Under the pieces are notes generated by a model that worked only from the letters and a program-made list of their open reading frames with translations, was not told the origin of the DNA and searched no databases. From Nitrososphaeraceae archaeon (GTDB taxonomy: Archaea; Thermoproteota; Nitrososphaeria; Nitrososphaerales; Nitrososphaeraceae), in contig JALDRC010000001.1 of NCBI GenBank assembly GCA_031316115.1, positions 124,001 through 188,000 of the forward strand: DNA of 64,000 nucleotides, written 5' to 3'. The translations under genes and the position numbers were made by a program. Each line of letters starts with the position of its first letter. The first letter of the stretch is position 1. This document shows positions 30,192-31,765 of the stretch, one piece after another.

Positions 30192-31244
30192 ATGATTTCT
30201 GCAAGAATAGTGAAAACTAATTCTCCTCTGAAAGTCGAGAATTTAGAACAACCTAAACCTATTCATTCACAGGTACTGGTACGAGTTAAGGCGGCAGGCA
30301 TATGCCATAGTGATTTACACTTATGGGAGGGAGGATACTTAGGCGCTGGAGGCAAATTTATGAAAGTAGAGGACAGAGGCGTTAGATTTCCATTAACGCC
30401 CGGTCATGAAATAGCTGGGACGGTAGAAGAGACAGGAGAAGCGGTAGAGTATTTTCAAAAAGGCGACAAAGTATTAGTTTATCCATGGATAGGAGATCAA
30501 ATATGTTTGTCATGTAAATCAGGCGATGAACATTTATGTGATTCACCAAAGACCTTAGGAATTTATCAAGATGGAGGATATTCAGATTTTATTTTAGTTC
30601 CGCATTATAAATATTTATTAAAATTAGATCAAAACGATTTTGACTCTGCTGCATCACTTGCCTGTTCAGGTCTTACTTCTTATACTGCTATAAAGAAGGC
30701 TTCGGCTTCTCCAGGAGATAATTTAGTTATTATCGGGGCAGGGGGACTGGGATTGATGGCAGTTCAGGTAGCAAAAAAAATAACAAATTCTAACATAATT
30801 GTAGTTGACGTAGATAACAAGAAATTAGATGAAGCTATCAAGTTGGGAGCGGATGAGGTTATCAATTCCAAAGAAGTGGACCCTGTCAAGAACATTAAAG
30901 ACTTGTCAGGAGGAACTGGTTGTGAAATAGTTGTGGATTTTGTGAATAATAATATTACATCGAAATTTGCTATTGATAGTCTTAGAAAGAGAGGAAAATA
31001 TATTATGGTAGGGCTTTTTGGTGGATCTTTAGAATTGAATTTACCATTAGTTCCTCTACGTGCATTTAATATAACTGGAGCTTATACTGGAAGATTTACA
31101 GATTTAATTGAACTTGTAGAGCTATATAAAAAAGGAAAGATAAATTCAGTAGTCTCTAAAAAATACAAAATAGATGATGCCAATCAAGCGTTAGAAGATT
31201 TAAAGAATCGTAAAATTATTGGACGTGCTGTATTTAACCCTTAA
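30192..31244 (+). CDS. adh: Zinc-dependent medium-chain alcohol dehydrogenase
   Basis: 350 residues. Catalytic zinc site AAGICHSDLHLWEGG (Cys38) with PGHEIAGTVEETG (His72, Glu73). The structural zinc lobe DQICLSCKSGDEHLCD has three Cys rather than four, as in Sulfolobus-type ADHs where the remaining ligand is acidic. Rossmann motif VIIGAGGLGLMAVQVA followed by VVDVDNKKL, where the Asp predicts NAD(H). The substrate is unknown. Alone, convergent with tRNA-Tyr. Confidence 0.9.
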   Translation: MISARIVKTNSPLKVENLEQPKPIHSQVLVRVKAAGICHSDLHLWEGGYLGAGGKFMKVEDRGVRFPLTPGHEIAGTVEETGEAVEYFQKGDKVLVYPWIGDQICLSCKSGDEHLCDSPKTLGIYQDGGYSDFILVPHYKYLLKLDQNDFDSAASLACSGLTSYTAIKKASASPGDNLVIIGAGGLGLMAVQVAKKITNSNIIVVDVDNKKLDEAIKLGADEVINSKEVDPVKNIKDLSGGTGCEIVVDFVNNNITSKFAIDSLRKRGKYIMVGLFGGSLELNLPLVPLRAFNITGAYTGRFTDLIELVELYKKGKINSVVSKKYKIDDANQALEDLKNRKIIGRAVFNP

Positions 31245-31292
31245 TACAGTTTTAGCTTTTTTTTATAGGAATATGTATCCCGCGAGCAGGAT

Positions 31293-31321
31293 ATGCCCCA
31301 AATAACAGTAGTTATTTTTGT
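31293..31321 (-). other. Intron 2 of tRNA-Tyr (within the T loop)
   Basis: 29 nt dividing T-loop CTCAA from AT. On the RNA strand AAATAAC and GTTATTT can form a 7-bp hairpin capped by TACT. Flanking GCTC and GGGC could pair as the 4-bp core of a relaxed bulge-helix-bulge with AAA and ATA bulges, the substrate of archaeal splicing endonuclease. Confidence 0.75.
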
Positions 31322-31341
31322 TTGAGCCTGCGACAATTCGG

Positions 31342-31399
31342 TTTCTATCGCATGTTAGCCTGATAGGCTGATTATTACGTTTAGCCAATTTAGCCAACT
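31342..31399 (-). other. Intron 1 of tRNA-Tyr (anticodon loop, position 37/38)
   Basis: About 58 nt between anticodon-loop base 37/38 and the 3' stem CCGAA. An A at each junction makes the exact cut ambiguous by one base. The site is the canonical archaeal intron position. The insert contains the paired-looking segments AGTTGGCT and AGGCTAAC. Confidence 0.8.
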
Positions 31400-31765
31400 T
31401 CTACAGCCGAAAGCTCTACCAGGCTGAGCTACCGCGGGATATCTCCAGTGAATCATCAATTATATATAATTTATTCTAAGTAAACCATCTAGAATAAAGC
31501 CTGAAAACTTTTTTTGAAATAAGTATAAGTATTAAATAATTATAGAACACATACAAAGATCGCGTGATAAAAGACAAGATAGCAACATTCTAAAATATAA
31601 CGCATATTTTATTCAAAACCTTATTTAATTTAGCATAATCTGAAATATACTTTAATTACATTTTAACTAATGTAGAGAATGAATGTTTATTAAAAAATAT
31701 TCTGATAGTGAATTATCTTTAATAAAATAATAAGATATAAATTCGGATCTCTTAAAAAAAAACAG

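What the first reader, a model, noticed from the sequence alone, without database searches (positions are those of the whole stretch)
31278..31438. tRNA-Tyr with two introns, one in the T loop
The gene folds only if about 58 nt are removed from the anticodon loop and 29 nt from the T loop. The second insert has its own 7-bp hairpin and a plausible relaxed bulge-helix-bulge. Multiple non-canonical introns are known in some Crenarchaeota and thaumarchaea, but a T-loop intron paired with the standard one is uncommon. It implies a splicing endonuclease of broad specificity.
Basis: partly seen in the sequence, partly recalled or inferred. Interest (0 to 1): 0.6.

Follow-up and report, generated by a model that had tools for sequence, protein, structure and literature searches.

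The report
Two-intron tRNA-Tyr, intron pairs D loop

Summary
The minus strand at 31278-31438 encodes the only tRNA-Tyr(GUA) found in a 98.8%-complete archaeal genome. It folds only after removal of a 58-nt intron at 37/38 (31343-31400) and a 29-nt T-loop intron (31293-31321); the spliced RNA is a standard 74-nt tRNA. ARAGORN calls tRNA-Tyr only once the T-loop insert is removed. All 32 same-family orthologues read in full keep both introns. The genome has two EndA-like genes, fitting an alpha2beta2 splicing endonuclease.

T-loop introns and relaxed bulge-helix-bulge sites are a known archaeal kind. New here is a conserved 8-nt segment of the 37/38 intron (31358-31365) complementary to D-loop nucleotides 15-21 of the same tRNA (31417-31424). 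In the order, all eight pairs form in 93 of 95 distinct genes. C17-G/U17-A, U20-A/C20-G/A20-U and probably G15-C/A15-U exchanges occur, several within single families, so it is a real long-range helix. It extends to other classes of the phylum. Its function is inferred: it should hold the D loop away from the T loop until splicing.

Some relatives have four introns in tRNA-Tyr; three was the published maximum. No RNA data were available.

The parts
31278..31438 (-). tRNA-Tyr(GUA) gene, pre-tRNA 161 nt, mature 74 nt
   Evidence: orthologues
31401..31438 (-). exon 1, nt 1-37 (acceptor 5' strand, D arm, anticodon arm 5' side, GUA)
31343..31400 (-). intron 1, 58 nt, position 37/38
   Evidence: ARAGORN i(38,58) once intron 2 is removed; conserved in all relatives
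31322..31342 (-). exon 2 (nt 38 to 58: anticodon stem 3' side, variable loop, T stem 5' side, start of T loop)
31293..31321 (-). intron 2, 29 nt, T loop 58/59 (or 31292-31320 if 59/60)
31278..31292 (-). exon 3 (end of T loop, T stem 3' side, acceptor 3' strand, discriminator A)
31417..31424 (-). D-loop nucleotides 15-21 (GCCUGGUA), partner 1 of the D-loop:intron helix
   Evidence: covariation
31358..31365 (-). intron-1 segment UAUCAGGC, partner 2 of the D-loop:intron helix
   Evidence: covariation
31381..31397 (-). intron-1 hairpin H1 (strands 31392-31397 and 31381-31386)
   Evidence: 6 of 8 pairs with changes on both sides
31345..31348 (-). intron-1 AUAG, pairs with CUGU 32-35 (31403-31406): 4-bp central helix of BHB 1; bulges AG|A and AA|A
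   Evidence: sequence; C32-G and U33-A never vary
31296..31298 (-). intron-2 GGG, pairs with CUC 54-56 (31324-31326): central helix of the relaxed BHB 2
   Evidence: sequence; GAG or GGG in the orthologues read
31300..31317 (-). intron-2 7-bp hairpin (strands 31311-31317 and 31300-31306)
   Evidence: sequence; hairpin kept with different sequences in relatives
31460..31469 (-). TATA-like promoter element, 22-31 bp upstream
   Evidence: read; A+T-rich TATA-like box at similar distance in orthologues

Best explanation
It is the functional, apparently single-copy tRNA-Tyr(GUA) gene of a Nitrososphaeraceae-type archaeon, with two protein-spliced introns cut by the alpha2beta2 splicing endonuclease: a canonical 58-nt intron at 37/38 with a regular 4-bp BHB, and a 29-nt intron in the T loop with a relaxed BHB (anatomy shown; splicing inferred). 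Intron 1 is a structured element, not filler: 8 nt of it (UAUCAGGC) form a long-range helix with D-loop nucleotides 15-21, next to a local hairpin (helix shown by covariation). The inferred mechanism is that in the precursor the D loop is held by intron 1 and the T loop is opened by intron 2, so G18/G19 and U55/C56 cannot form the elbow. Splicing frees both loops, letting the L shape form only then. The helix lies close to the BHB strand, so it probably also fixes the BHB's orientation for cleavage.
For: Two introns. All 32 same-family orthologues read in full carry both, and the introns diverge freely while the exons do not. EndA pair: one subunit is closest to 2cv8/3p1z and one to 5x89/1a79. 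D-loop helix: 8/8 pairs in 93 of 95 distinct genes; position 17 C-G 83, U-A 11, U.G 1; position 20 U-A 90, C-G 3, U.G 2. On an alignment made without regard to structure, 2 of its 8 pairs change on both sides; for the whole 27-pair structure no shuffle of 500 reaches any measure and slid versions collapse. Phylum-wide, with the register chosen without positions 17 and 20 and rows collapsed by family and state: 121 of 141 Watson-Crick cells against a shuffled mean of 93.9, maximum 110 in 20,000. Matched changes inside single families: position 17 in f8, f13 and f22, position 20 in f4 and f10. In genus g31 the C17-G, U17.G and U17-A states all occur (L166, L075, L165). The local hairpin that could otherwise explain the segment is broken at its inner pair in family f9 and in the U17 types, while the D-loop pairing stays.
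Against: No RNA evidence: neither splicing nor the helix in the precursor has been observed. A complete 8-bp helix inside a 9-nt D loop is strained, so some pairs may be alternative to the D stem or to the intron's own short hairpin. Free search of shuffled introns gives 8 of 9 pairs or better in 17%, so single-sequence complementarity proves nothing; the case rests on covariation. A few lineages break pairs (L138/L140 at 21; L270 and L266 pair only 15-19; L230 mismatches 20). f9 and other lineages keep the helix without any T-loop intron, so the helix does not exist for the sake of intron 2.
Confidence: 0.85

Rival explanations
1. The conserved intron-1 segment is only one arm of a local hairpin (CAGCC/GGCUG), and the D-loop complementarity is a by-product of shared GCC/GGC sequence.
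For: A short local stem G-C, C-G is possible in nearly all sequences of the alignment.
Against: When the D loop has U17 the segment changes to AAGC or GAGC while the local 5' arm stays CAGCC, which breaks the local pair; f9 has CAGCA; L267 has no CAGC arm. U20/C20/A20 is matched by A/G/U in what would be the hairpin loop.
Confidence: 0.06
2. Intron 1 is a guide RNA (like the box C/D guide in euryarchaeal tRNA-Trp introns) that directs a modification in the D loop in cis or trans.
For: Complementarity of guide length to a tRNA loop; precedent in the tRNA-Trp intron (d'Orval 2001 and Singh 2004, cited in PMC11408192).
Against: I saw no conserved C box or D box next to the segment; the CUGA in many f1 and f9 introns is CUAA in the window's genus. 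No Rfam guide family matches. Pairing is contiguous, unlike an H/ACA pocket.
Confidence: 0.1
3. The helix serves only as a clamp that presents BHB 1 to EndA, taking the place of the missing inner helix h', and has nothing to do with delaying the D-loop/T-loop contact.
For: The segment lies a few nucleotides 5' of the BHB strand in most genes (9 nt of it plus 8 nt to the splice site); f9 and others keep it without a T-loop intron.
Against: Not distinguishable here from the checkpoint model; occupying G18/G19 necessarily blocks the elbow while it lasts.
Confidence: 0.3
4. Pseudogene or assembly artefact: the 29-nt T-loop insert is not removed and the gene is dead.
For: Relaxed BHB 2 with a 5-nt 3' bulge; no RNA data.
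Against: No other tRNA-Tyr in the assembly; insert present in all 32 same-family orthologues read in full with near-invariant flanking exons.
Confidence: 0.02

Closest known systems
Archaeal BHB tRNA introns at canonical 37/38 and non-canonical sites, Thermoproteales and Thaumarchaeota (PMC8450103, PMC4033280, PMC4090602)
   Same: Intron positions, BHB splice sites, alpha2beta2 endonuclease, multiple introns in one tRNA gene
   Different: Intron 1 carries a phylum-wide covarying helix with the D loop; some relatives have four introns where the literature gives three as the maximum
Permuted tRNA-Tyr(GUA) of Thermofilum pendens, joined at 59/60 with a 37/38 intron (PMC3218864)
   Same: Same tRNA, a T-loop splice site at or one nucleotide from the same place, plus a canonical intron
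   Different: Here the gene is in normal order and the T-loop segment is an intron, not a permutation junction
Red alga C. merolae tRNA-Ile(UAU) with D, anticodon and T-loop introns (PMC9602550)
   Same: T-loop intron with BHB beside an anticodon-loop intron; there the T-arm intron blocks Psi55 formation by Pus4
   Different: Eukaryote, different tRNA; no D-loop:intron helix is described in the parts I read
Euryarchaeal tRNA-Trp intron that encodes a box C/D guide (cited in PMC11408192)
   Same: A structured, conserved archaeal tRNA intron that base-pairs with its own tRNA
   Different: No C/D boxes seen here, different pairing site (D loop), no guide-family match

Membership tests
tRNA-Tyr(GUA) | 74-nt cloverleaf with GUA anticodon and C1-G72 after splicing | tested here: met
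   ARAGORN call on spliced sequence; 0 of 300 shuffles called; C1-G72 read from sequence
Archaeal BHB intron, 37/38 | 4-bp central helix with two 3-nt bulges at the exon junctions | tested here: met
   CUGU/AUAG, bulges AG|A and AA|A in the sequence; the first two central pairs invariant in 38 genes
Archaeal BHB intron, T loop | BHB or relaxed BHB at the junctions | tested here: met
   CUC/GGG central helix, AA|A 5' bulge, enlarged 3' bulge: relaxed form; a regular UUCA/UGAA form can be drawn in relatives such as L067
Archaeal BHB intron | excised in vivo by the splicing endonuclease | not testable with these tools
   no RNA data
alpha2beta2 splicing endonuclease in the host | two EndA-like genes, one catalytic and one structural | tested here: met
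   two PF01974 loci over cut-off; best PDB matches differ between the two; the Tyr/His/Lys triad was judged by eye only, and subunit assembly is inferred
Box C/D guide intron (tRNA-Trp type) | boxes C/D flanking the antisense segment | tested here: not met
   no conserved boxes seen in 95 aligned introns, no Rfam match
Structured tRNA intron pairing with the D loop (proposed) | covariation between D-loop nt 15-21 and the intron segment | tested here: met

The most novel reading that the evidence does not exclude
The 37/38 intron of tRNA-Tyr in Thermoproteota is an ancient structured RNA domain whose helix with the D loop acts as a folding and maturation checkpoint: it keeps the tRNA out of the L shape until EndA has cut, and this protected state lets T-loop and other extra introns accumulate in tRNA-Tyr, up to four.
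Probability: 0.35. Interest if true: 0.8.

Novelty: new variant of a known kind. Interest (0 to 1): 0.6.

Why it matters
Archaeal tRNA introns are usually treated as mobile filler recognised only by a local BHB. Here a canonical intron keeps a specific long-range contact with the tRNA body over very deep divergence, which makes it directly testable whether an archaeal tRNA intron shapes folding, modification order or splicing. It also gives one possible reason why tRNA-Tyr keeps its intron, and practical covariation rules for finding tRNA-Tyr genes that standard programs miss.

Tried and rejected
Box C/D or H/ACA guide reading of intron 1 (no boxes seen, no Rfam match). Local hairpin as the sole explanation (inner pair broken in f9 and in U17 lineages). 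Chance complementarity per intron as evidence: shuffled introns reach 8 of 9 or better in 17%, so this argument was dropped in favour of covariation. A SAM-II riboswitch match overlapping the gene's 3' end is far below the gathering score and taken as chance. A plasmid search found nothing. A first automated count of T-loop introns was wrong where ACCGG occurs inside intron 1 and was redone (L103 remains a known false positive and L281 a probable false negative, both read by eye). Literature searches for a tRNA intron pairing with the D loop found no description; most subscription journals are not in that library.

Full report
Observation. Read on the minus strand, 31438 to 31278 is a tRNA-Tyr(GUA) gene in three exons of 38, 21 and 15 nt separated by 58 and 29 nt. 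ARAGORN and Rfam in default use do not see it. ARAGORN with introns allowed finds nothing in the 161-nt precursor, nothing when only the 58-nt insert is removed, tRNA-Tyr(gta) with a 58-nt intron when only the 29-nt insert is removed, and a plain tRNA-Tyr when both are removed; 0 of 300 shuffled mature sequences are called. The held genome (3.16 Mb, 98.8% complete) has no other tRNA-Tyr: the spliced 74-mer matches the exons of this gene, and otherwise only other tRNA genes weakly, and the Tyr-type D-arm/anticodon pattern occurs once.

Conservation of the two introns. A DNA search of 60 relatives found nearly full-length orthologues in 31 of the 36 other genomes of the same family. The 30 loci first read (the window's own copy included) all hold intron 1 at 37/38 (56-67 nt) and intron 2 in the T loop (20-33 nt), with near-identical exons, and two more read later agree. 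A downstream convergent alcohol-dehydrogenase-like gene is also seen in relatives, judged by eye. The T-loop intron is absent in the 76 f9 genes read and in f2, f18-f22 and others; it is present in f1, f4, f5, f10, f11, f16, f17, f29, f33, f39 and f40, and in part of f8 and f13. It is thus old or repeatedly gained in tRNA-Tyr. BHB 1 of the window is regular: CUGU(32-35)/AUAG with bulges AG|A and AA|A. BHB 2 is relaxed: CUC(54-56)/GGG, 5' bulge AA|A, enlarged 3' bulge; the cut is at 58/59 or 59/60.

Enzyme. Two EndA-like genes lie in the genome. One matches solved tRNA-splicing endonuclease chains such as 2cv8 and 3p1z best; the other, which I read as beta-like, matches 5x89 and 1a79. This fits the alpha2beta2 enzymes reported for Thaumarchaeota, a group rich in unusual splice sites (PMC4090602).

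The D-loop:intron helix. Aligning intron 1 across the order showed a nearly invariant block, CAGC-CUAYYRGGC-N2-ACAG. Its UAYYRRGC part is complementary to D-loop nucleotides 15-21 of the same tRNA. In 95 distinct genes the pairs at 15, 16, 17, 17a, 18, 19 and 20 form in all, and at 21 in 93 (some genes with one bulged nucleotide or an extra 5' nucleotide); position 17 is C-G 83, U-A 11, U.G 1 and position 20 is U-A 90, C-G 3, U.G 2 (Fisher values there ignore phylogeny). A MAFFT alignment of 38 representatives, made without structure, gives 11 of 27 pairs with changes on both sides and 0 of 500 shuffles as good; sliding the partners by one to three columns drops pairing from 96% to 26-50%. The D-loop helix contributes two of those pairs, the intron hairpin H1 six, and the anticodon stem three.

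Depth. A covariance model of the 5' part plus intron finds tRNA-Tyr with this intron in other orders of the class and in other classes of the phylum. There D loop and intron keep changing together: C20 with G in L213, L215, L220, L221; U17 and C20 together in L229 and L284; A20 with U in L265, L271, L281; and A15 opposite U in L230 when its CCAGGUU is read by eye. The automated register does not recover the L230 pairing, so that one is a reading, not a count. Choosing the register without using positions 17 and 20 and collapsing rows by family and state, 121 of 141 Watson-Crick cells are met; 20,000 shuffles of the D loops never exceed 110. Matched changes occur inside single families, so common descent alone does not explain them: position 17 in f8, f13 and f22, position 20 in f4 and f10; in genus g31 the C-G, U.G and U-A states coexist (L166, L075, L165). 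The local hairpin alternative is broken at its inner pair in these same lineages.

Mechanism. Shown: anatomy, conservation, covariation. Inferred: splicing by EndA and the role of the helix. Pairing of G15-A21 with the intron occupies G18 and G19, and in the window intron 2 engages U55 and C56, so the elbow contact cannot form in the precursor. I favour a model in which the helix tethers the intron next to BHB 1 and delays tertiary folding until cleavage. The simpler clamp model is nearly as good, and lineages without a T-loop intron show that the helix has its own reason to exist.

Comparison with the literature. Multiple and non-canonical introns are established (PMC8450103, PMC3293823), the published maximum per archaeal tRNA gene is three (PMC4033280, PMC8450103), and T-loop junctions at 59/60 are known, including tRNA-Tyr of T. 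pendens (PMC3218864). A T-arm intron blocks Psi55 formation in a red alga (PMC9602550), an example of introns setting modification order. I found no description of a tRNA intron pairing with its D loop, but most subscription papers are not in that library, so novelty is provisional.

In passing, three tRNA-Tyr genes tested (L073, L074, L080) become a canonical 74-nt tRNA-Tyr when four inserts are removed; L179, L185 and L284 have the same layout by eye. Without RNA data these remain predictions.

Noticed in passing
L073, L074, L080 (and by eye L179, L185, L284): tRNA-Tyr genes with four introns (anticodon stem, 37/38, about 53/54, 58/59-59/60); removing all four gives a canonical 74-nt tRNA-Tyr. 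Published maximum is three.
   Followed up: partly
L268 and L275 (family f29): tRNA-Tyr with a long intron inside the D loop itself, upstream of most of the part that pairs with intron 1; it would probably have to leave before the full D-loop:intron helix can form.
   Followed up: no
L067, L072, L077, L081, L274: tRNA-Tyr genes with an extra intron in the D stem; L274 seems to have another insert near the variable loop.
   Followed up: no
L291 (G000:C1:479650-480000) and L293 (G000:C16:214250-214620): Other tRNA genes of the window's own genome that ARAGORN misses, apparently with D-arm or anticodon plus variable/T-arm introns.
   Followed up: no
window 31242-31305: Sub-threshold SAM-II riboswitch match (20.9 bits against a gathering score of 44) overlapping the 3' end of the tRNA; taken as chance.
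   Followed up: partly
window 30192-31244: Convergent zinc-type alcohol-dehydrogenase-like gene ends about 33 bp from the tRNA 3' end; its C-terminal coding region also seems to follow the tRNA in several relatives (for example L035, L131).
   Followed up: no
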